Source: Mixophyes australis
Lineage: Eukaryota > Chordata > Amphibia > Anura > Limnodynastidae
NCBI GenBank assembly: GCA_036250195.1
Contig: JAVHZZ010000067.1
Span: forward strand, 496,001-560,000
DNA: 64,000 nt
Direction: 5' to 3'
In this document: positions 6,001 through 64,000 of the stretch, piece after piece
Layout: each line of letters starts with the position of its first letter
How positions within the stretch are numbered: the stretch's first letter is position 1
Program-made: the position numbers and the translations under genes
Notes under the pieces: generated by a model
Seen by the model: the letters and a program-made list of their open reading frames with translations, nothing else
Told to the model about the DNA's origin: nothing
The model's database searches: none

Positions 6001-7365
6001 ACTGCAATCTATATTACTACGTTCACTGTTTCTGCAGTCCCAAAAAATAGGAACTGCAATCTATATTACTACTTTCACTGTTTCTGCAGTCCCAAAAAAT
6101 AGGAACTGCAATCTATATTACTACGTTCACTGTTTAAGCAGTCCAAAAAAATAGGAACTGCAATCTATATTACTACATTCACTGTTTCAGCAGTCCAAAA
6201 AATAGGAACTGCAATCTATATTACTACTTTCACTGTTTCTGCAGTCCCAAAAAATAGGAACTGCAATCTATATTACTACTTTCACTGTTGAAACAGTCCA
6301 AAAAATAGGAACTGCAATCTATATTACTACGTTCACTGTTTCTGCAGTCCCAAAAAATAGGAACTGCAATCTATATTACTACATTCACTGTTTCAGCAGT
6401 CCAAAAAATAGGAACTGCAATCTATATTACTACGTTCACTGTTTCTGCAGTCCCAAAAAATAGGAACTGCAATCTATATTACTACATTCACTGTTTCAGC
6501 AGTCCAAAAAATAGGAACTGCAATCTATATTACTACGTTCACTGTTTCTGCAGTCCCAAAAAATAGGAACTGCAATCTATATTACTACTTTCACTGTTTC
6601 TGCAGTCCCAAAAAATAGGAACTGCAATCTATATTACTACGTTCACTGTTTCTGCAGTCCAAAAAAATAGGAACTGCAATCTATATTACTACATTCACTG
6701 TTTCAGCAGTCCAAAAAATAGGAACTGCAATCTATATTACTACTTTCACTGTTTCTGCAGTCCCAAAAAATAGGAACTGCAATCTATATTACTACTTTCA
6801 CTGTTGAAACAGTCCAAAAAATAGGAACTGCAATCTATATTACTACGTTCACTGTTTCTGCAGTCCCAAAAAATAGGAACTGCAATCTATATTACTACGT
6901 TCACTGTTTCTGCAGTCCCAAAAAATAGGAACTGCAATCTATATTACTACGCTCACTGTTTAAGCAGTCCAAAAAAAAAAGAACTACAATCTATATTACT
7001 ACGTTCACTGTTTAAGCAGTCCAAAAAAATAGGAACCGCAATCTATATTACTACGTTCACTGTTTCTGCAGTCCCAAAAAATAGGAACTGCAATCTATAT
7101 TACTACGTTCACTGTTTAAGCAGTCCAAAAAAAAAAGAACTGCAATCTATATTACTACGTTCACTGTTTAAGCAGTCCAAAAAAATAGGAACTGCAATCT
7201 ATATTACTACGTTCACTGTTTCTGCAGTCCCAAAAAATAGGAACTGCAATCTATATTACTACTTTCACTGTTGAAGCAGTCCAAAAAATAGGAACTGCAA
7301 TCTATATTACTACGTTCACTGTTTCTGCAGTCCCAAAAAATAGGAACTGCAATCTATATTACTAC
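1..7365. repeat. Tandem duplication inside satellite, 4,558-bp offset
   Basis: Rare monomer variants recur at a constant offset of 4,558 bp: CTACAG (about 24 and 4582), CTAAGTT (424/4982), GAACTGAAAT (923/5481), GGAAGTG (1026/5584), TTCACAG (1361/5919) and GCTCACTG (near 2393/6951). The right copy starts at 4559. It loses one 52-bp monomer after about 7106 and then follows the left copy at offset 4,506 until about 2859/7365. The left copy may begin outside the window. The copies look near-identical, so the event is recent. Markers were compared by eye, not by full alignment. Confidence 0.85.
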
Positions 7366-55788: not shown

Positions 55789-56118
55789 TCAGATAAGAGC
55801 TAAACAATCCATAAGGAGAATTCTCTTTGATTCCCTCTTGAGCTCCTGATGGAGATCTCCTCCTCTCAAACCCATCTTGATCTGTTCCATGACAAATGCC
55901 TGTAGTGATCTTGGATCACAGTCATGGCACTTCATAAAGCTCCTTTCAACATATGTTAGTTGTTTTAAATTATCTCTGTCTCTCCTGACTCTCTTTATGT
56001 TGTTTACATGCTCCAAGATTCTATTTTTGAGTGACCTGCCTGTCATGCCACCATAGTTTAAGTTACAGGGACAAGTTAAGCAGTAAATAACATTCGGAGG
56101 GTTACAATTTATGAATCC
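55789..56118 (-). pseudogene. Penelope-like element, GIY-YIG endonuclease C-terminus
   Basis: This minus-strand frame encodes the C-terminal end of a Penelope-like retroelement polyprotein, the part that nicks target DNA. Visible features are NPPNVIYCLTCPCNLNYGG (the GIY...YIG region, here VIY and YGG), then the RSLKNRILEHVNNI helix, a ConservedHxxxC-like pair in KCHDCDP, and LRGGDLHQELKRES near the end. TGA follows at about 55789. The upstream part (reverse transcriptase) is missing because the Gypsy element is inserted exactly at 56118/56119; the rest should lie beyond the window. The family usually ends RESxWIxxL; the conserved W is lost here, so decay began before or besides the insertion. 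Confidence 0.75.
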
Positions 56119-56190
56119 TGTCACTCACCGGACTGTGAGTGCTTCTTCCCGGACATTTAGGAACCGTGGTCGTCCTCCATCCTGAGGGTC

Positions 56191-56202
56191 TGCGCATGCG
56201 CA
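56191..56202. promoter_or_regulatory. TGCGCATGCGCA palindrome, NRF-1-like site in U3
   Basis: This 12-bp perfect palindrome fits the NRF-1 consensus YGCGCAYGCGCR. It lies 63 bp before the TATA-like box and is repeated in the 3' LTR at 62455-62466. Binding is inferred from sequence only. Confidence 0.55.
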
Positions 56203-56246
56203 GCCCTTTCCTATACTTCAGTGTATGTCCCTTTAACTCAATTGGC

Positions 56247-56305
56247 AGATCAGGCAACACTCCCTATATTAAGCACCTGTGGTCAACACCACGTTGCCTG
56301 ATCTT
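56247..56305 (+). promoter_or_regulatory. Core promoter: TATA-like box within a 12-bp inverted repeat
   Basis: TATATTAA lies at 56265-56272. The predicted start about 30 bp on falls at 56295-56296, at GCCTGATCTT. The box is flanked by a perfect 12-bp inverted repeat, AGATCAGGCAAC (56247-56258) and GTTGCCTGATCT (56293-56304). The right arm holds the sequence complementary to the primer site after the LTR. Confidence 0.6.
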
Positions 56306-56375
56306 GGAGTCTCATTCCCCATGAGTCTCTGAAGGTGTTCCTGTATTCCTCGTGTATTCAGCGCTGCTGATTCCT

Positions 56376-56443
56376 GTGGTTTCCAAACCACTTCTATCTC
56401 TGTGGTTTCCAAACCACTTCTACTACTGTGGTTCCCATACCAC
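56376..56443 (+). repeat. Three tandem GTGG...CCAC hairpins
   Basis: GTGGTTTCCAAACCAC occurs at 56376-56391 and 56402-56417 (7-bp stem), and GTGGTTCCCATACCAC at 56428-56443 (5-bp stem). Each is followed by TTCTA(T/C). The unit is about 26 bp. All would lie in the element's RNA leader just after its predicted 5' end. Confidence 0.8.
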
Positions 56444-56460
56444 TTCTACCATCAACTGTA

Positions 56461-56940
56461 TCATCGTGACTGTTTGCTGATTCCTATCCGCTGCCTCCGT
56501 GCACTACAGTCTTCTAAACCACTTCAACGCTATTATATATCATTGTGACTGTTTGCTGATTCCTATCCGCTGCCTCCGTGCACTCCAGCCTTTACTTCAC
56601 ATCCACTCACCTGTTCATCATCAAGTCTGTGAGCTGATTCCTATCCGCTGCCTCCGTGCACTACAGTCTCCAGCTTGCAACTCGCCTGTGTTCATCATCG
56701 TGACTGTGAGCTGATTCCTATCCGCTGCCTCCGTGCACTACAGTCTCCAGCTTGCAACTCGCCTGTGTTCATCATCGTGACTGTTAGCTGATTCCTATCC
56801 GCTGCCTCCGTGCACTACAGTCTCCAGCTTGCAACTCGCCTGTGTTCATCATCGTGACTGTTAGCTGATTCCTATCCGCTGCCCCTGTGCACTGCAGTCT
56901 CATCTCAGCTCTCCTGTGTTTCCTCGAGACTGCTGCTCTC
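56461..56940 (+). repeat. ~77-bp tandem repeat in LTR, six units
   Basis: CTGATTCCTATCCGCTGCC starts at 56477, 56556, 56634, 56711, 56788 and 56865, giving steps of 79, 78, 77, 77 and 77 bp. The last units (TGCACTACAGTCTCCAGCTT, then GCAACTCGCCTGTGTTCATC) are near-identical, the first two diverged. The same block is present in the 3' LTR. Confidence 0.9.
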
Positions 56941-57651
56941 ATTGCCATCCGCTACTCTCCGTGATCAACAGCTCCTGGTCTACTCTGCTCTCCCGTGTTC
57001 CATCGCTACTGGCACCTATTGGTTGCTACTGGTTACCCCCGTGTGCCCGCAGAGTCCTGCTGCTGCTGTCAGAGCTATCGTCCATCTACTGCTGATCCGC
57101 TCTCCACGCCTTCACGTGTCCCGCTGGTCTCTACCCTCCTGTCAGCATTGGATTCGTATCTCATCAACTACTCCTCTGCTGGATCATCTCCATTCTCCTG
57201 GGCCCTCCATGAGTCCAGTTCCACGTGTTACTGATTCCTGTGGATTCGTGTCCCTGTTGGTCTACTTACCTGTGCGCTGCACCTACTAGACCGCTGCCTC
57301 ATCCATCCAGGGACTTCTCATCCAGCCGGCCTCCTGCCGCTCAGGTATCGCTGCACTCCTATCTGACTGCCTGCTTCTGAACCACGGTATGCATACTTCT
57401 CATTGACTGTGCTGGTGTATTGCATATCTTGCTGGACTGTGTTGGTTCTCCTCTGGAGTCTGCTATCCGCTGAGTCTATTGCCATCATTGACTGTGTTAT
57501 CTTGTGCTGGATTACTTCAAGAGACTTTCTATATTTGCAGACCTGTTCAGTCATTTATATATATTGTGCATATTACTGTGGATCGTGTATAAGGTGCCCG
57601 TGTATATCCTGTGTTGCAGTCTCTCCCCGTGCACCTCCTCACATATATATT

Positions 57652-57911
57652 CAGTGGTACAACTTGCTGATGACAGACCACTGATCCCTGTTTCCTGTAT
57701 CACCTGTTCCAGTATCCTCTCACATAGCAGTGGTACAACTTGCTACCGCAGACCACTGACTTCCCGGATACCTCCACTTGGATTCCATTCCTTCACTCAG
57801 ACAGCGGTACAACTTGCTATCCGCAGACCGCTGACTCTCATCACCTCCTTGTTTCTGTTGGACATTCCTCCTCACTATAGCAGTGGTACAACTTGCTATC
57901 GCAGACCACTG
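57652..57911 (+). repeat. Four repeated hairpins with a compensatory change
   Basis: CAGTGGT-ACAACTTGCT...CAG-ACCACTG occurs at 57652-57683, 57728-57758 and 57881-57911. The copy at 57802-57833 has CAGCGGT paired with ACCGCTG. There T:A has become C:G on both sides of the stem, so the 7-bp stem is kept. The loop start ACAACTTGCT is constant; the rest of the loop varies in length. The copies are 74-79 bp apart and their flanks are unlike. They would lie in the RNA leader 230-490 nt before gag. Kept pairing suggests an RNA function such as packaging or dimerization, or cap-independent translation; this is inferred. Confidence 0.8.
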
Positions 57912-58128
57912 ACTACCTTCACGTGCCCTTGTCCATACAGTTCCTCGTGTATTATTACCTCCATATTACCAGTGCTGCTAGTCATAGACTTTCCTGAGCA
58001 TCTCATCATCTACCATTTCCTGTTCCGTGATCACCCAGCTACCAGAGTACCCTATTACCATCTACATTGCTCTGGTAAGCCTACCACCTGGTGATCCCTG
58101 GGTAAAGACTCCTAGTGCCCGTGACAGT

Positions 58129-58138
58129 AAGATCAGGC
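58129..58138 (+). promoter_or_regulatory. Primer-binding site, probably self-primed
   Basis: AAGATCAGGC is the exact reverse complement of GCCTGATCTT at 56296-56305, the predicted 5' end of the transcript. It starts two bases after the LTR and ends one base before the gag ATG (58140). Elements of the Tf1/sushi group are known to prime reverse transcription by folding back their own 5' end. I recognise no tRNA 3' end here. Confidence 0.7.
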
Positions 58139-58139
58139 C

Positions 58140-59072
58140 ATGACAGACCCAGATACGGAACCTACCGCCAAAGAGATGCTGCAGCATCTGGTCAGCCGTG
58201 TGGAGCAACAGGATGCCCGCCAACAGCTGTTACTTCAGTGTTATCAGTCATTAACCTCCCAAGGAACATCTGGACAGACTGTGACAGCTACTACTGAGGC
58301 TCCTGTGCTTTCCTCCGTTTCCCCAGTGCCATCCCAGGTGTCTACAGCTTCCACGCTTCACCTGCCTACTCCGTCAAAGTACGATGGAGACCCCAAAACT
58401 TGTAGGGGTTTCCTTAACCAATGTTCAGTCTATTTTGAGCTCCAACCTCAAAATTTTTCTACCCATCGTTCCAGAGTGGCCTATCTTATCTCTTTGTTTT
58501 CAGGACAAGCCCTGGCTTGGGCCTCCCCTCTGTGGGAAAGAAACGATCCAATATTACAAGATAGTGCCAAATTCATTTCCACATTCCGAAGTGTGTTCGA
58601 TGAACCAGGTCGTGTGACTTCCGCTGCTTCCAGCATCCTCCGTCTGCGACAAGGATCTCATACAGTAGGCCAGTACGTCATTCAATTAAGGATCTTAGCC
58701 TCTGAACTTCAGTGGAACACTGAAGCCCTAGTTGCCGCCTTCTGGCAGGGGCTTTCCGATAAAATTAAAGATGCACTGACTACTCAAGAGCTTCCTTCGT
58801 CACTTGAAGATTTGATCTCTCTATGCCATCGTGTTGATATGAGATTTCGTGAAAGAGAGGCTGAGAAAACAACTTCAGCTAAAGCACCTCTTCGTTCTAA
58901 CCCTCAATTTCGTCCAGTTTCACCCTCTGTGATTCCCATGGAGATAGGACGTTCCAAATTATCTTCAGAGGAGAGGAAACGAAGAGTAAAGAATAGACTC
59001 TGTATCTATTGTGCTGATTCCACTCATATTCTCAGCTCGTGCCCTAAGAGATCGGGAAATGCCAGGCCCTAA
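58140..59072 (+). CDS. Gag polyprotein of the Gypsy element, 310 aa
   Basis: Gag forms the particle that packages element RNA in the cytoplasm. ATG 58140 is chosen because it follows the primer site and the frame is open to TAA 59070-59072. Residues 1-45 are polar and glutamine-rich with helix/coiled-coil character. Residues ~78-235 match the capsid-like domain of sushi-type Gag (TPSKYDGDPKTCRGFLNQC, then LISLFSGQALAWASPLW, then FDEPGRVTSAASSILRLRQG). Residues ~235-285 are basic and Ser/Pro-rich. A CCHC knuckle closes the protein with C288, C291, H296 and C301; Thr replaces the usual Gly before the His. The last codons overlap the pol frame, which is reached by -1 frameshifting. It is intact. 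Mammalian PEG10 and RTL1 come from related elements. Confidence 0.93.
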   Translation: MTDPDTEPTAKEMLQHLVSRVEQQDARQQLLLQCYQSLTSQGTSGQTVTATTEAPVLSSVSPVPSQVSTASTLHLPTPSKYDGDPKTCRGFLNQCSVYFELQPQNFSTHRSRVAYLISLFSGQALAWASPLWERNDPILQDSAKFISTFRSVFDEPGRVTSAASSILRLRQGSHTVGQYVIQLRILASELQWNTEALVAAFWQGLSDKIKDALTTQELPSSLEDLISLCHRVDMRFREREAEKTTSAKAPLRSNPQFRPVSPSVIPMEIGRSKLSSEERKRRVKNRLCIYCADSTHILSSCPKRSGNARP

Positions 59073-62000
59073 CTAGTTCTGGAGAGGTGAAGTTAGGGTC
59101 CCTGGAGTCCTCTCCATCTTCCATGAAATCTAAAGTCTGCGCCTGTGATGTTACGATTTCCTGTGCTACCAAAACCTTTGAGTCACAGGCATTGATTGAT
59201 TCCGGAGCAGCAGGAAATTTTATTTCCAAATCATTAGTAAATCAATGGTCTCTACCAGTGATTACCTTAAAAACACCCATTACTGTGACGGCTATAGATG
59301 GATCACGTCTCATCAACGGTCTCATCACCCAGAGTACGTCTCCAGTAACCCTTCAGATTGGTGCCCTGCATCATGAAGAAATATCGTTTTTAATCCTTCC
59401 TGTTACGACAAGTCCGATTGTCTTAGGCCTTCCATGGCTTCAGTGTCACTCTCCCCAGATTGACTGGCGCACCCCTCAAGTCACGTCTTGGGGGTCTGAA
59501 TGCCACCATCGTTGCCTTTCCCAAGTCATTCCTCTCAAAGTACAGCAATCTTCCATCTCATCTACCTCACCGGGACTCCCTCCTCAATATGCTTCATTTA
59601 CTGATGTTTTTGATAAAGCTCAGTCTGAACGTCTTCCTCCTCATCGTTCTTGGGATTGTCCGATCGACCTTCTTCCTGGCAAGACTCCTCCCAGGGGCCG
59701 GGTCTATCCACTCTCGTTACCTGAAACTCAAGCTACATCTGAGTATATACAGGAGAACCTCCAGCGTGGGTTTATTCGACCTTCCACCTCTCCCGCTGGA
59801 GCTGGGTTCTTCTTCGTCAAAAAGAAGGATGGATCATTACGCCCTTGCATAGATTTTCGTGGACTCAATGCCATTACTATCAAGAATCGGTATCCCATTC
59901 CGCTGATCACTGAGCTATTCAATCGCATCAAGGGAGCCCGTATCTTTACTAAGTTGGATCTTCGTGGTGCCTACAATTTAATCAGAATCCGTTCCGGTGA
60001 CGAATGGAAGACAGCGTTTAACACCAGAGACGGGCATTACGAATATCTGGTAATGCCTTTCGGGCTGTGTAATGCCCCCGCTGTTTTTCAAGGCTTCATC
60101 AATGAGATCTTTCGGGACTTATTATATGTATGTGTCGTCGTCTACCTGGACGACATATTGATCTTTTCACAGGACCTGCCTTCTCACCACCAACATGTGG
60201 CAGAAGTCCTCTCCAGGCTACGGAAAAATTCATTGTTCTGTAAATTAGAAAAATGTTCATTCGAATTACCCCAGATTCCATTCTTGGGGTATATAGTTTC
60301 CGGAGTTGGCCTGAAGATGGATCCAGACAAGGTGAATGCTGTACTACATTGGCCCCAGCCAACTACTCTTCGTGCTATCCAGCGTTTTTTATGTTTTGCC
60401 AATTACTATAGACGCTTCATTCAAGACTTTTCTTCCATTGCATCTCCTATTGTGGCCCTGACTCGGAAAGGGGCTAATCCTAAGCAATGGTCACCTGAGG
60501 CTCTTCAAGCCTTTCAAACACTAAAAGAGTCCTTCTCTTCGGCTCCAATCCTTCGACAGCCTGATGTGACACTCCCCTTCTTTCTAGAAGTAGATGCCTC
60601 TAATGTGGGCTTAGGAGCTATTCTCTCCCAACGCTCGGAACAGCAAAAATTCCATCCTTGTGCCTTCTATTCTCGGGGTCTCCTGCCCGCAGAGAAGAAT
60701 TATACTATCGGGGACAAGGAGCTACTGGCTATCAAAGCCGCATTAGAGGAATGGAGATACTTATTGGAGGGAGCTCGCCATCCGGTGACGATCTTCACGG
60801 ATCATAAGAACTTGTCATATCTCCAGTCTGCCCAATGCTTGAACCCTCGTCAAGCAAGATGGTCTCTTTTCTTTTCCCGTTTTGAATTAATAATAACCTT
60901 CAAACCAGCTGCCAAGAACAAAAAAGCTGACGCTTTATCTAGAGCCTTTGTGACGTCCTCTGATATAGAAGAGGTTTCCAACCATACCATTCTAGACCCC
61001 AAATGTATCTCACTGGCTGCTTCATCCACCAAAACGCTACCATTTGGGAAGACCCTCGTGCCTCCTACTCTAAGGAGGAAAATCCTTTCGTGGTTCCATG
61101 CCTCCCGTTTTTCTGGACACGCCGGTGAACACAAGACCTTTGAGATTCTCTCTCGAAGTTACTGGTGGCCTTCAATGAGGAGAGACGTCAAAGAGTTCAT
61201 TGCTTCTTGTGAGCTATGTTCCCAGTTCAAATCCTCCCGCAGAACTCCAGCAGGGTTGCTGCGACCACTACCCATTCCGTCCAAACCATGGACCCATATT
61301 AGTATGGATTTCGTTACTGACTTACCACCTAGTAAGAATCATAACACTATTTGGGTGGTGGTGGACAGATTTTCGAAGATGGCTCATTTCATCCCTCTGT
61401 CTGGTTTGCCTTCCTCGTCTATCCTGGCTGAACATTTCATTAAAGAGATCTTCCGTATCCATGGATGTCCGTCTGAGATTGTGTCAGATAGAGGAGTACA
61501 ATTCGTTTCCAGATTCTGGCGAGCCCTTTGTAAAACCTTGGGCATACGATTAGCACTCTCATCTTCTTACCATCCGCAATCTAACGGACAAACTGAACGT
61601 GTCAATCAAGATCTTGAGACTTTTATAAGAATGTTTTCATCAGCCAATCAAGACAACTGGGTAGAGTTGCTTCCTTGGGCTGAATTCGCCCATAACAACA
61701 TGTACCATGAGTCATCATCCAAAACTCCATTTTTTGTGGTCTACGGTCACCATCCGTCTTTTCCGGAATTTCCTGCCCTCCCGCCCACCCAAGTTCCTGC
61801 GGTGGAAACTGTTTGTCAGACCTTTAAAAATATCTGGTCTCAGGTCAAAACCTGTTTAAAGAAGACATCTATCAAATATAAATCTTTCGCAGATAAGAAG
61901 AGGCGGGCTATTCCACCACTAAAAATTGGAGATCGTGTCTGGTTATCTACCAAAAATATTCGTTTAAAGGTTCCATCTATGAAATTCGCCCCTCGTTTTA

Positions 62001-62449
62001 TTGGTCCATATAGGATCATTCAAGTAATCAATCCAGTATGTGTGAAACTTCTTCTTCCTAAGAATCTTCGGATTTCTAATGCCTTCCATGTATCCTTGCT
62101 CAAACCTCTTATTATCAACCGTTTCTCAACTCCTCCCTCAGCTCCGCAGCCAGTTCAAGTTCATCAGGAGGAGGATTTCGAGATTACTGAGGTACTAGAC
62201 GCAAAAATTTCGCGAGGAGTCCTCCATTTCCTCGTTCATTGGAAGGGCTTTGGTCCTGAGGAGCGCTCTTGGATCAAAGCTGAAGATCTTAATGCTCCTG
62301 CCCTTTTGAAGAAGTTTTATTCCAAAAATCCGGACAAGCCCGGTTCCAGGCGTTCTGTGCCCACCTTTAAAAGGGGGGGTACTGTCACTCACCGGACTGT
62401 GAGTGCTTCTTCCCGGACATTTAGGAACCGTGGTCGTCCTCCATCCTGA
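59048..62449 (+). CDS. Pol polyprotein: protease, RT, RNase H, integrase, chromodomain
   Basis: The frame opens at 59048 without a needed ATG and is entered by -1 frameshift at 59054-59060; the first residue counted here is codon 59087. In order: aspartic protease, ALIDSGAAGNFIS (D38); reverse transcriptase ~185-400 with VMPFGLCNAPAVF and the YLDD box (353-356); RNase H from ~497 with VDASN (D503) and TDHKNL; integrase with zinc motif H678-x3-H682...C708-x2-C711 and D741, D801, E837 (D-35-E); and a chromodomain at ~1030-1085 (FEITEVLDAKIS, LVHWKGFG, SWIKAEDL). The chromodomain, thought to steer insertion to marked chromatin, defines a chromovirus. All catalytic residues are present and there is no internal stop. 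The last 22 codons lie inside the 3' LTR, so the C-terminus is encoded by U3. Confidence 0.95.
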   Translation, partial: EIGKCQALTSSGEVKLGSLESSPSSMKSKVCACDVTISCATKTFESQALIDSGAAGNFISKSLVNQWSLPVITLKTPITVTAIDGSRLINGLITQSTSPVTLQIGALHHEEISFLILPVTTSPIVLGLPWLQCHSPQIDWRTPQVTSWGSECHHRCLSQVIPLKVQQSSISSTSPGLPPQYASFTDVFDKAQSERLPPHRSWDCPIDLLPGKTPPRGRVYPLSLPETQATSEYIQENLQRGFIRPSTSPAGAGFFFVKKKDGSLRPCIDFRGLNAITIKNRYPIPLITELFNRIKGARIFTKLDLRGAYNLIRIRSGDEWKTAFNTRDGHYEYLVMPFGLCNAPAVFQGFINEIFRDLLYVCVVVYLDDILIFSQDLPSHHQHVAEVLSRLRKNSLFCKLEKCSFELPQIPFLGYIVSGVGLKMDPDKVNAVLHWPQPTTLRAIQRFLCFANYYRRFIQDFSSIASPIVALTRKGANPKQWSPEALQAFQTLKESFSSAPILRQPDVTLPFFLEVDASNVGLGAILSQRSEQQKFHPCAFYSRGLLPAEKNYTIGDKELLAIKAALEEWRYLLEGARHPVTIFTDHKNLSYLQSAQCLNPRQARWSLFFSRFELIITFKPAAKNKKADALSRAFVTSSDIEEVSNHTILDPKCISLAASSTKTLPFGKTLVPPTLRRKILSWFHASRFSGHAGEHKTFEILSRSYWWPSMRRDVKEFIASCELCSQFKSSRRTPAGLLRPLPIPSKPWTHISMDFVTDLPPSKNHNTIWVVVDRFSKMAHFIPLSGLPSSSILAEHFIKEIFRIHGCPSEIVSDRGVQFVSRFWRALCKTLGIRLALSSSYHPQSNGQTERVNQDLETFIRMFSSANQDNWVELLPWAEFAHNNMYHESSSKTPFFVVYGHHPSFPEFPALPPTQVPAVETVCQTFKNIWSQVKTCLKKTSIKYKSFADKKRRAIPPLKIGDRVWLSTKNIRLKVPSMKFAPRFIGPYRIIQVINPVCVKLLLPKNLRISNAFHVSLLKPLIINRFSTPPSAPQPVQVHQEEDFEITEVLDAKISRGVLHFLVHWKGFGPEERSWIKAEDLNAPALLKKFYSKNPDKPGSRRSVPTFKRGGTVTHRTVSASSRTFRNRGRPPS
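59054..59116 (+). promoter_or_regulatory. -1 ribosomal frameshift signal: slippery site plus pseudoknot
   Basis: In the gag frame the codons read G GGA AAT at 59054-59060, a correct-phase X XXY YYZ heptamer. After a 6-nt spacer comes stem 1, CCCTAACT (59067-59074) with AGTTAGGG (59091-59098), 8 perfect pairs and extendable by G-U and G-C. Stem 2 pairs the loop bases TGGAGAGG (59080-59087) with CCTCTCCA (59109-59116), 8 perfect pairs. Connecting loops are 5, 3 and 10 nt. The pol frame is open from 59048, so slipping here joins gag to pol. PEG10, a related domesticated gene, uses GGGAAAC plus a pseudoknot. Confidence 0.85.
62369..62382 (+). promoter_or_regulatory. Polypurine tract
   Basis: AAAAGGGGGGGTAC directly precedes the 3' LTR and would prime plus-strand DNA. 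It lies inside the pol frame (FKRGGT). Confidence 0.85.
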
Positions 62450-64000
62450 GGGTCTGCGCATGCGCAGCCCTTTCCTATACTTCAGTGTATGTCCCTTTAA
62501 CTCAATTGGCAGATCAGGCAACACTCCCTATATTAAGCACCTGTGGTCAACACCACGTTGCCTGATCTTGGAGTCTCATTCCCCATGAGTCTCTGAAGGT
62601 GTTCCTGTATTCCTCGTGTATTCAGCGCTGCTGATTCCTGTGGTTTCCAAACCACTTCTATCTCTGTGGTTTCCAAACCACTTCTACTACTGTGGTTCCC
62701 ATACCACTTCTACCATCAACTGTATCATCGTGACTGTTTGCTGATTCCTATCCGCTGCCTCCGTGCACTACAGTCTTCTAAACCACTTCAACGCTATTAT
62801 ATATCATTGTGACTGTTTGCTGATTCCTATCCGCTGCCTCCGTGCACTCCAGCCTTTACTTCACATCCACTCACCTGTTCATCATCAAGTCTGTGAGCTG
62901 ATTCCTATCCGCTGCCTCCGTGCACTACAGTCTCCAGCTTGCAACTCGCCTGTGTTCATCATCGTGACTGTGAGCTGATTCCTATCCGCTGCCTCCGTGC
63001 ACTACAGTCTCCAGCTTGCAACTCGCCTGTGTTCATCATCGTGACTGTTAGCTGATTCCTATCCGCTGCCTCCGTGCACTACAGTCTCCAGCTTGCAACT
63101 CGCCTGTGTTCATCATCGTGACTGTTAGCTGATTCCTATCCGCTGCCCCTGTGCACTGCAGTCTCATCTCAGCTCTCCTGTGTTTCCTCGAGACTGCTGC
63201 TCTCATTGCCATCCGCTACTCTCCGTGATCAACAGCTCCTGGTCTACTCTGCTCTCCCGTGTTCCATCGCTACTGGCACCTATTGGTTGCTACTGGTTAC
63301 CCCCGTGTGCCCGCAGAGTCCTGCTGCTGCTGTCAGCGCTATCGTCCATCTACTGCTGATCCGCTCTCCACGCCTTCACGTGTCCCGCTGGTCTCTACCC
63401 TCCTGTCAGCATTGGATTCGTATCTCATCAACTACTCCTCTGCTGGATCATCTCCATTCTCCTGGGCCCTCCATGAGTCCAGTTCCACGTGTTACTGATT
63501 CCTGTGGATTTGTGTCCCTGTTGGTCTACTTACCTGTGCGCTGCACCTACTAGACCGCTGCCTCATCCATCCAGGGACTTCTCATCCAGCCGGCCTCCTG
63601 CCGCTCAGGTATCGCTGCACTCCTATCTGACTGCCTGCTTCTGAACCACGGTATGCATACTTCTCATTGACTGTGCTGGTGTATTGCATATCTTGCTGGA
63701 CTGTGTTGGTTCTCCTCTGGAGTCTGCTATCTGCTGAGTCTATTGCCATCATTGACTGTGTTATCTTGTGCTGGATTACTTCAAGAGACTTTCTATATTT
63801 GCAGACCTGTTCAGTCATTTATATATATTGTGCATATTACTGTGGATCGTGTATAAGGTGCCCGTGTATATCCTGTGTTGCAGTCTCTCCCCGTGCACCT
63901 CCTCACATATATATTCAGTGGTACAACTTGCTGATGACAGACCACTGATCCCTGTTTCCTGTATCACCTGTTCCAGTATCCTCTCACATAGCAGTGGTAC
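62383..64000 (+). repeat. 3' LTR, first 1,618 bp, cut by window end
   Basis: It begins TGTCAC and repeats the 5' LTR at an offset of 6,264 bp, with three substitutions seen (63337, 63511, 63732). It contains the same NRF-1-like palindrome, TATA-like box, hairpins and 77-bp repeats. About 390 bp should lie beyond the window. Confidence 0.95.

What the first reader, a model, noticed from the sequence alone, without database searches (positions are those of the whole stretch)
57652..57911. Four leader hairpins in the Gypsy LTR, one with a compensatory C:G pair
Three stems read CAGTGGT/ACCACTG and the fourth CAGCGGT/ACCGCTG, so one base pair changed on both sides while the loop start ACAACTTGCT stayed constant. 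Flanking sequence is not conserved. This pattern argues for selection on RNA structure in the element's leader (packaging, dimerization, or internal ribosome entry). I know of no described equivalent for this family.
Basis: partly seen in the sequence, partly recalled or inferred. Interest (0 to 1): 0.75.

Follow-up and report, generated by a model that had tools for sequence, protein, structure and literature searches.

The report
Conserved RNA hairpin array in retrotransposon
A very abundant retrotransposon in this animal genome carries a row of near-identical RNA hairpins at the start of its message, whose pairing has been kept by matching changes on both sides, most likely because a protein grips them.

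Summary
The four hairpins are real, and the host genome carries the test further. The element is a Tf1/sushi-type chromovirus with a 2,008-nt LTR and a presumed 1.84-kb leader. The hairpin pattern (pair 4 left free) occurs 78,345 times in the 3.1-Gb genome. Each unit is a 7-bp stem, a near-invariant bulge (ACAAC), a short upper stem and a variable apical loop, in arrays of up to 8 units, mostly 74-80 nt apart.

Between subfamilies spacers diverge (0.26 mismatches per site plus 15% gaps) while stems and bulge hardly change. A second exists at pair 2 (911 double changes, 98 of 100 listed G:C); there the G.U wobble is fixed in one subfamily's unit 2 (1,123 genome-wide), the A.C mismatch rare and scattered (142). 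Selection on RNA pairing is well supported.

Caveats: both covarying pairs are CpG steps; C.A at pair 4 recurs in one subfamily; T.G at pair 4 was never counted; five of seven pairs show no double change. Function is untested; a multivalent Gag-binding packaging signal is my best guess. Leader ATG depletion argues for scanning, against an IRES.

The parts
56119..58126 (+). 5' LTR (TGTCACTC...GTGACA), 2,008 nt
   Evidence: 1616 of 1619 positions identical to the part of the 3' LTR inside the window, from 62383; ends
56265..56272 (+). TATA-like box, 29 nt before TTGCCTGATC
   Evidence: spacing of 29 nt in 18 of 18 LTRs examined
56296..56305 (+). GCCTGATCTT, presumed RNA 5' end and self-primer
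   Evidence: exact complement of the primer binding site
56296..58139 (+). presumed 1.84-kb RNA leader, ATG-depleted
   Evidence: 4 ATG against 36.0 expected, 0 of 2000 shuffles as low; CAT 49 against 49.6
56374..56449 (+). 26-bp tandem repeat, 2.9 copies
56460..56901 (+). 77-bp tandem repeat, 5.7 copies, in the leader
57652..57683 (+). hairpin unit 1 (T:A at pair 4; predicted upper stem only 3 bp)
57728..57758 (+). hairpin unit 2 (T:A)
57802..57833 (+). hairpin unit 3 (C:G at pair 4)
57881..57911 (+). hairpin unit 4 (T:A)
58129..58138 (+). AAGATCAGGC, presumed primer binding site for self-priming, 2 nt after the LTR
58140..59072 (+). gag ORF, 310 aa, DUF4939 + Retrotrans_gag, one CCHC zinc knuckle
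   Evidence: zinc knuckle read by eye
59087..62449 (+). pol ORF, 1,120 aa: protease, RT, RNase H, integrase, chromodomain
62383..64000 (+). 3' LTR, cut by the window end inside hairpin unit 2
63916..63947 (+). hairpin unit 1 of the 3' LTR

Best explanation
The region is an array of conserved bulged RNA hairpins in the long untranslated leader of a Tf1/sushi-type LTR retrotransposon. Shown here by comparison: between subfamilies the lower stem, the ACAAC bulge and the upper stem are nearly constant while apical loops and spacers differ; where the lower stem did change at the level of whole lineages, both sides changed so that pairing was kept (pair 4 in one lineage, pair 2 in another, the latter with G.U still fixed in one unit of a subfamily). 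Inferred: the units descend from a tandem repeat of about 78 nt; the element needs the folded RNA as a binding site, and several copies give avidity. Most likely partner: the element's own Gag, which has a basic stretch and one CCHC zinc knuckle, so that the array works as a multivalent packaging signal in the 3' half of the leader. Part by part: selection on RNA structure about 0.88; protein-binding array given that, about 0.75; Gag as the partner given both, about 0.5. The confidence field is for the statement as a whole, with Gag as the favoured, unproven partner.
For: Abundance: 82,431 left 17-mers; 78,345 full patterns with pair 4 free; the reversed-pattern controls gave 0. Divergence in 25 four-unit arrays, 20 of group A and 5 of group B: between groups lower stem left .039 and right .050, bulge .005, upper stem .025/.019, loop .327, spacer .255 plus 15% gaps; within group A lower stem .007/.007, bulge .010, upper stem 0/.032 against loop .228 and spacer .106. 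The right arm was not used to pick these arrays. Pair 4: 14,546 C:G against 462 C with another partner. Pair 2: 911 double changes, 98 of 100 listed G:C; G.U 1,123; A.C 142; independence would give about 26 G:C. G.U is shared in unit 2 beside G:C in unit 3 in one subfamily. Trees put the unit-3 C arrays apart from the all-T:A arrays. ATG depletion starts at the presumed TSS: 2.5 per kb in 18 leaders, 14.5 in the 180 nt before. Gag zinc knuckle. PEG10, a sushi-related Gag (PMC4340606, search listing), binds its own mRNA and other RNAs without a shared sequence motif (PMC6450627, passages).
Against: Both covarying pairs are CpG versus TpG/CpA steps on both arms, so methylation-driven change eases double changes. 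At pair 4 the C.A mismatch, not a wobble, is the known exception; it recurs in the subfamily with 80/79 spacing and in four units of the 8-unit array L086. T.G at pair 4 could not be counted; none is among the 118 hairpins. Pairs 1, 3, 5, 6 and 7 show no lineage-level double change among the 353 matches, so there conservation could be of sequence alone. The upper stem shows no covariation. In a fold of the whole leader hairpins 1 and 2 have pair probabilities of only about 0.39 and 0.62 (3 and 4: 0.89 and 0.98). The left arm's conservation is favoured by the way copies were found. Nothing here shows Gag binding.
Confidence: 0.5

Rival explanations
1. Same structured RNA array, but the partner is a host protein: a nuclear-export or stability element for the unspliced genomic RNA, comparable in role to retroviral CTE/RTE elements.
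For: An unspliced RNA carrying gag-pol must be exported; bulged hairpins are typical protein sites (established knowledge, recalled). Structure evidence as for the best explanation.
Against: No Rfam family matched 56100-58200 at E up to 1. No experiment. The position fits packaging equally.
Confidence: 0.22
2. Translational control: the hairpins serve ribosome shunting or entry, or restrain scanning.
For: Leader of 0.8-2.2 kb in 18 LTRs; unit 1 of the window holds one of only four leader ATGs, a 4-codon frame that ends at the stem base, and close relatives keep an ATG there.
Against: Leaders hold 1-7 ATGs in 18 of 18 LTRs against 11.6-36.0 expected in the 16 that measured from the right start; this fits plain scanning, and IRES use would remove that pressure. 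Arrays of other subfamilies lack the unit-1 ATG.
Confidence: 0.1
3. No selection on pairing: CpG decay in the DNA on both arms, or template switching in hairpins, makes matching double changes by mutation alone.
For: Pairs 2 and 4 are both CpG-to-TpG/CpA steps on both arms (read from the sequences). Template switching can create and repair stems (PMC8794818, abstract and start of the introduction). C.A at pair 4 recurs.
Against: CpG decay is strand-symmetric and predicts as many A.C as G.U at pair 2; found 142 and 1,123, though these are copies and not independent events. Neither process explains the near-invariant unpaired bulge between diverging spacers, nor a shared G.U step. If the commoner T:A and A:T are ancestral, as most units suggest, the derived states gain CpG.
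Confidence: 0.08
4. DNA-level tandem binding sites (enhancer or insulator, as the Su(Hw) sites in Drosophila gypsy, recalled) whose inverted arms only look like a hairpin.
For: Tandem sites with inverted arms in an LTR; sequence conservation is strong.
Against: DNA binding does not explain why wobble is more accepted than mismatch at pair 2, or matching changes at two pairs. The array lies in the presumed transcribed, ATG-purged part.
Confidence: 0.07
5. Recent unit-to-unit homogenisation keeps the units alike, without function.
For: All-T:A arrays have regular units of 77-79 nt that differ little; unit 3/4 recombinants exist.
Against: Between units of the same array spacers differ at .256 (group A) and .177 (group B) and loops at .337 and .187, lower stems at .071-.079 (A, largely the C:G unit) and 0-.029 (B), bulge at .010 and 0.
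Confidence: 0.03

Closest known systems
Tf1/sushi group of chromoviruses (Ty3/gypsy; V-clade: sushi-ichi, Amn-ichi, Amn-san)
   Same: gag with DUF4939, RT/RNase H/integrase with chromodomain, primer site complementary to the presumed RNA 5' end, a self-priming layout described for this group (PMC6317226 and PMC4600332, passages)
   Different: LTR of about 1.0-2.0 kb in the 13 copies where one search found a plausible start, with a long ATG-depleted leader holding tandem repeats and the hairpin array; no listing in my paper searches named such an array
Retroviral packaging signals (MMTV, FIV psi)
   Same: structured motifs in the 5' region of the genomic RNA
   Different: here up to 8 near-identical units at regular spacing, in the LTR itself. 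Gag binding untested. MMTV and FIV papers seen as search listings only; the comparison rests on recalled knowledge
PEG10/RTL domesticated sushi-type Gag binding its own mRNA
   Same: Gag related to the sushi group (PMC4340606, search listing); binds its own mRNA (PMC6450627, passages)
   Different: binding reported in 3' UTRs of many mRNAs with no shared motif; no hairpin array in the passages seen
Retroviral CTE / IAP RTE export elements
   Same: structured RNA in a retroelement transcript that serves a host protein (recalled)
   Different: no Rfam match found; not compared directly
Drosophila gypsy Su(Hw) insulator array
   Same: tandem repeats near the 5' end of a Ty3/gypsy element (recalled)
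   Different: DNA sites (recalled); here pairing is kept by matching changes

Membership tests
Tf1/sushi group chromovirus | chromodomain at the C-terminus of integrase | tested here: met
   PF00385 at residues 1031-1079 of pol, E 4.2e-8
Tf1/sushi group chromovirus | protease-RT-RNase H-integrase order | tested here: met
Tf1/sushi group chromovirus | self-priming: primer site complementary to the RNA 5' end | tested here: met
   10-nt complement 56296-56305 / 58129-58138, at a fixed 29 nt from the TATA-like box in 18 of 18 LTRs. Sequence layout only; the RNA 5' end itself is inferred
Tf1/sushi group chromovirus | place in an RT/integrase tree with the group | not tested
   only gag homologs searched: 10 proteins, 6 named (Spea 1, Xenopus 1, Ascaphus 4), 4 unnamed
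Structured RNA under selection (covariation) | lineage-level compensatory changes beyond chance | tested here: met
   pairs 2 and 4, i.e. 2 of 7 lower-stem pairs. No R-scape run; the T.G cell at pair 4 is missing
Retroelement packaging signal | specific Gag/NC binding and need for encapsidation | not testable with these tools
   Gag has one CCHC knuckle, nothing more
IRES | cap-independent initiation | not testable with these tools
   indirect evidence against: ATG depletion
CTE/RTE export element | sequence/structure match to a known element | tested here: inconclusive
   0 Rfam matches at E up to 1 for 56100-58200; whether Rfam holds a relevant model was not checked

The most novel reading that the evidence does not exclude
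A retrotransposon has turned its packaging signal into a tandem repeat: up to 8 near-identical bulged hairpins at about 78-nt spacing act together as a multivalent Gag landing strip. Lineages gain, lose and fuse units by recombination while the fold is kept, and this array is part of what let the family reach some 20,000 LTRs (inferred from 78,345 hairpins at 3-4 per LTR). It would be a natural series for measuring how valency sets packaging.
Probability: 0.3. Interest if true: 0.8.

Novelty: new variant of a known kind. Interest (0 to 1): 0.62.

Why it matters
To my knowledge (recalled; the listings named none) conserved leader structures with real covariation have seldom been shown for vertebrate LTR retrotransposons, where copies mutate neutrally once inserted. 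Here a family with tens of thousands of hairpins lets single base pairs be tested by counting, and shows A:T, G.U and G:C states side by side. The array gives a small, defined RNA (31-32 nt) whose binding partner can be sought directly. If the partner is Gag, the packaging signal of the sushi group, to which PEG10 and the RTL genes are related, becomes testable.

Tried and rejected
Relatives elsewhere: the 17-mer in viral contigs gave 8 stretches with one match each, which I take as chance at that collection's size and did not follow up; the pol query found no relative there. Rfam: no match. Papers: no listing named such an array (2 papers; 0; 8 of 9 listed); listings and two passages of PMC4131045 gave only general frog LTR-element work; two searches were listings for export and packaging. 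The single double change in four copies was set aside as proof by itself. IRES set aside because of ATG depletion. Wobble over mismatch holds at pair 2 but could not be shown at pair 4: T.G was never counted, and C.A is the known exception; some C.A copies are unit 3/unit 4 recombinants by my reading (L071, L073, L078, L084). The p-value treats copies as independent and is not used.

Rows dropped or doubtful: 3 chance motif matches were dropped, but at least three more chance-like matches (one each in L073, L080, L087) stayed in its 353; 26 of 73 arrays without exactly 4 units; 8 of 33 arrays without exactly 4 units for the divergences; 15 of 33 arrays without a recognisable LTR end; L066 left out. 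In one search the start was misread for L057 and L066 (L066 then showed 47 ATG against 50.6), L055 was not measured, and the LTR starts of L051, L062 and L065 look wrong. In one search the one non-C row inside the unit-3 C side is L044, a fragment with a single unit. Loci L067-L106 were chosen for C with a non-G partner and L107-L126 for pair-2 double changes, so their frequencies are not a random sample; L017-L048 were chosen by the left 17-mer only. Shuffles keep single-base content only; those keep dinucleotides.

Full report
What is there. The window holds an LTR retrotransposon with open gag and pol frames: 5' LTR 56119-58126, gag 58140-59072, pol 59087-62449, 3' LTR from 62383, cut by the window end. 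The LTRs differ at 3 of the 1,619 positions that can be compared, so it is a young insertion. Gag carries DUF4939 and Retrotrans_gag, pol carries protease, RT, RNase H, integrase and a chromodomain: a chromovirus of the Tf1/sushi type. Of 10 gag relatives, the 6 with names come from Spea, Xenopus and Ascaphus, so the host is probably a frog; this is inference. The host genome is 3.126 Gb in 680 contigs and the window is C67:496001-560000.

The leader. GCCTGATCTT at 56296-56305 is the exact complement of the site just after the LTR (58129-58138), the layout of self-priming known for this group (PMC6317226 and PMC4600332, passages). TTGCCTGATC lies 29 nt behind the start of the TATA-like box in 18 of 18 LTRs examined. 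I take it as the RNA 5' end. From there to gag is 1.84 kb with 4 ATG against 36.0 expected, none of 2,000 shuffles as low, while the reverse-complement word CAT is not depleted. Over 18 LTRs the leader has 1-7 ATG, 2.5 per kb, and the 180 nt before it 14.5 per kb; 16 of them, measured from the right start, had 11.6-36.0 expected. The purge starts at the presumed transcription start, as expected if ribosomes scan the whole leader.

The hairpins. Units 2-4 fold as a 7-bp lower stem, a bulge ACAAC on the 5' side, an upper stem TTGC/GCAG (its first pair a wobble) and an apical loop; unit 1 folds with an 8-nt bulge and a 3-bp upper stem. Alone, units 2-4 have z of about -3.1 to -3.5, unit 1 -1.9. 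In a fold of the whole leader the four lower stems have pair probabilities of about 0.39, 0.62, 0.89 and 0.98, and the leader as a whole is more stable than each of 40 shuffles, z -3.2.

Copies. The left 17-mer occurs 82,431 times in the genome and the whole hairpin, pair 4 free, 78,345 times, about 95%, although the right arm was not part of the first search. I fetched 32 LTR pieces from the first listed places. With the window they hold 118 hairpins: 91 T:A, 19 C:G, 1 C.A, and 7 with other departures in the lower stem. Two groups stand out among the 25 arrays of four units. In group A (20) unit 3 has C on the left and spacing is 74-80 nt; in group B (5) all units have T and spacing is 77-79 nt. 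Trees of the flanks separate them (18 of 33 arrays, where L044, a one-unit fragment, falls with group A, 47 of 73 arrays, where the 5 T:A arrays form one clade, 100/100). The five group-B arrays are only 67-71% identical to the window over their longest aligned stretch, hairpins included, yet the hairpins are nearly the same.

Rates. Between groups the spacers differ at 0.255 of aligned sites plus 15% gaps and the apical loop at 0.327, but the lower stem at 0.039 and 0.050, the bulge at 0.005 and the upper stem at 0.025 and 0.019; within group A spacer 0.106 and loop 0.228 against lower stem 0.007 and 0.007, bulge 0.010, upper stem 0 and 0.032. One changed position in 28 gives 0.036, so most of the stem difference between groups is the C:G unit itself. 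The left arm is favoured by the way arrays were found; the right arm is not.

Compensation at pair 4. Genome-wide there are 14,546 C:G and 462 with C on the left and another partner (97 of the 100 listed are C.A by my reading). So 96.9% of C-left hairpins have G on the right. Arrays picked for C with another partner suggest three sources: fusion of unit 3 with unit 4, loss of G on the right arm, and T to C in other units. Against my reading, C.A recurs in the subfamily with 80/79 spacing and four times in the 8-unit array L086, and in the midpoint-rooted tree several C.A copies sit near the base of group A; it may be a tolerated intermediate or CpG decay. The count of T.G did not complete; none is among the 118 hairpins.

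Compensation at pair 2. Double changes number 911, and 98 of the 100 listed are G:C, with several different loops. Twenty such arrays show a subfamily in which unit 2 is G.U and unit 3 G:C, and another with two G:C units, beside A:T units. Genome-wide G.U is 1,123, where the list also shows pairs of LTRs at many loci with the loop of the window's unit 4, and A.C is 142 (the 100 listed are scattered over many loop types). Independence would give about 26 G:C. Copies are not independent events, so I lean on the pattern and not on a p-value: at this pair the wobble became shared by whole lineages, and the listed mismatches did not.

Other pairs. In 93 arrays and 353 matches, pairs 1, 3, 5, 6 and 7 show scattered one-sided changes, and three loci (L114, L121, L126) share a unit with two wobbles at pairs 6 and 7; no shared double change. 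The bulge is ACAAC in 341 of 353.

Alternatives. Both covarying pairs are CpG against TpG/CpA on both arms, so methylation-driven change must be considered. It acts equally on both arms and predicts as many A.C as G.U at pair 2, which is not found. Template switching can make and repair stems (PMC8794818, abstract and start of the introduction) but does not explain the conserved unpaired bulge or the shared wobble. DNA binding sites would not favour wobble over mismatch. Homogenisation would carry the loops and spacers along.

Function. The array begins about halfway along the leader or later in the 16 copies that measured from the right start. Gag has a basic stretch and one CCHC knuckle (read by eye). 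PEG10, a domesticated Gag related to the sushi group (PMC4340606, search listing), binds its own mRNA and other RNAs with no common sequence motif (PMC6450627, passages). For Ty1 and Ty3 packaging sequences are said not to be precisely defined (PMC4974528, passages). I therefore take a multivalent Gag-binding packaging signal as the most likely use, a host export or stability factor as second. Neither is shown.

Verdict. It is a new variant of a known kind, a structured retroelement leader, notable for being a tandem array with genome-scale covariation at two pairs.

Noticed in passing
window 57670-57684: Unit 1 of the window holds one of only four leader ATGs: ATG ACA GAC CAC TGA, a 4-codon frame ending at the stem base. 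Its first 10 letters ATGACAGACC equal the start of gag at 58140. Close relatives (L020, L021, L034, L035) keep an ATG there; arrays of other subfamilies do not.
   Followed up: partly
window 56460-56901: A second tandem repeat (77 bp, 5.7 copies) in the leader has nearly the same period as the hairpin array; by eye several units carry GACTGT...ACAGTC arms. Conservation in other copies was not examined.
   Followed up: no
G000 C1:9472332-9497721 and C1:262880327-262902177: Five hairpin hits each at nearly constant steps of 6,347-6,348 and 5,453-5,490 nt look like head-to-tail arrays of elements sharing LTRs.
   Followed up: no
L086: An 8-unit hairpin array with four C.A units, apparently a duplicated block.
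   Followed up: partly
L114, L121, L126: Three loci whose last unit has a changed right side but can still pair through two wobbles (CAGTGGT/GTCACTG).
   Followed up: no
window 56119-58400: No AATAAA, ATTAAA, AGTAAA or TATAAA in the LTR and early gag, so the polyadenylation site and the R/U5 border are unknown.
   Followed up: partly
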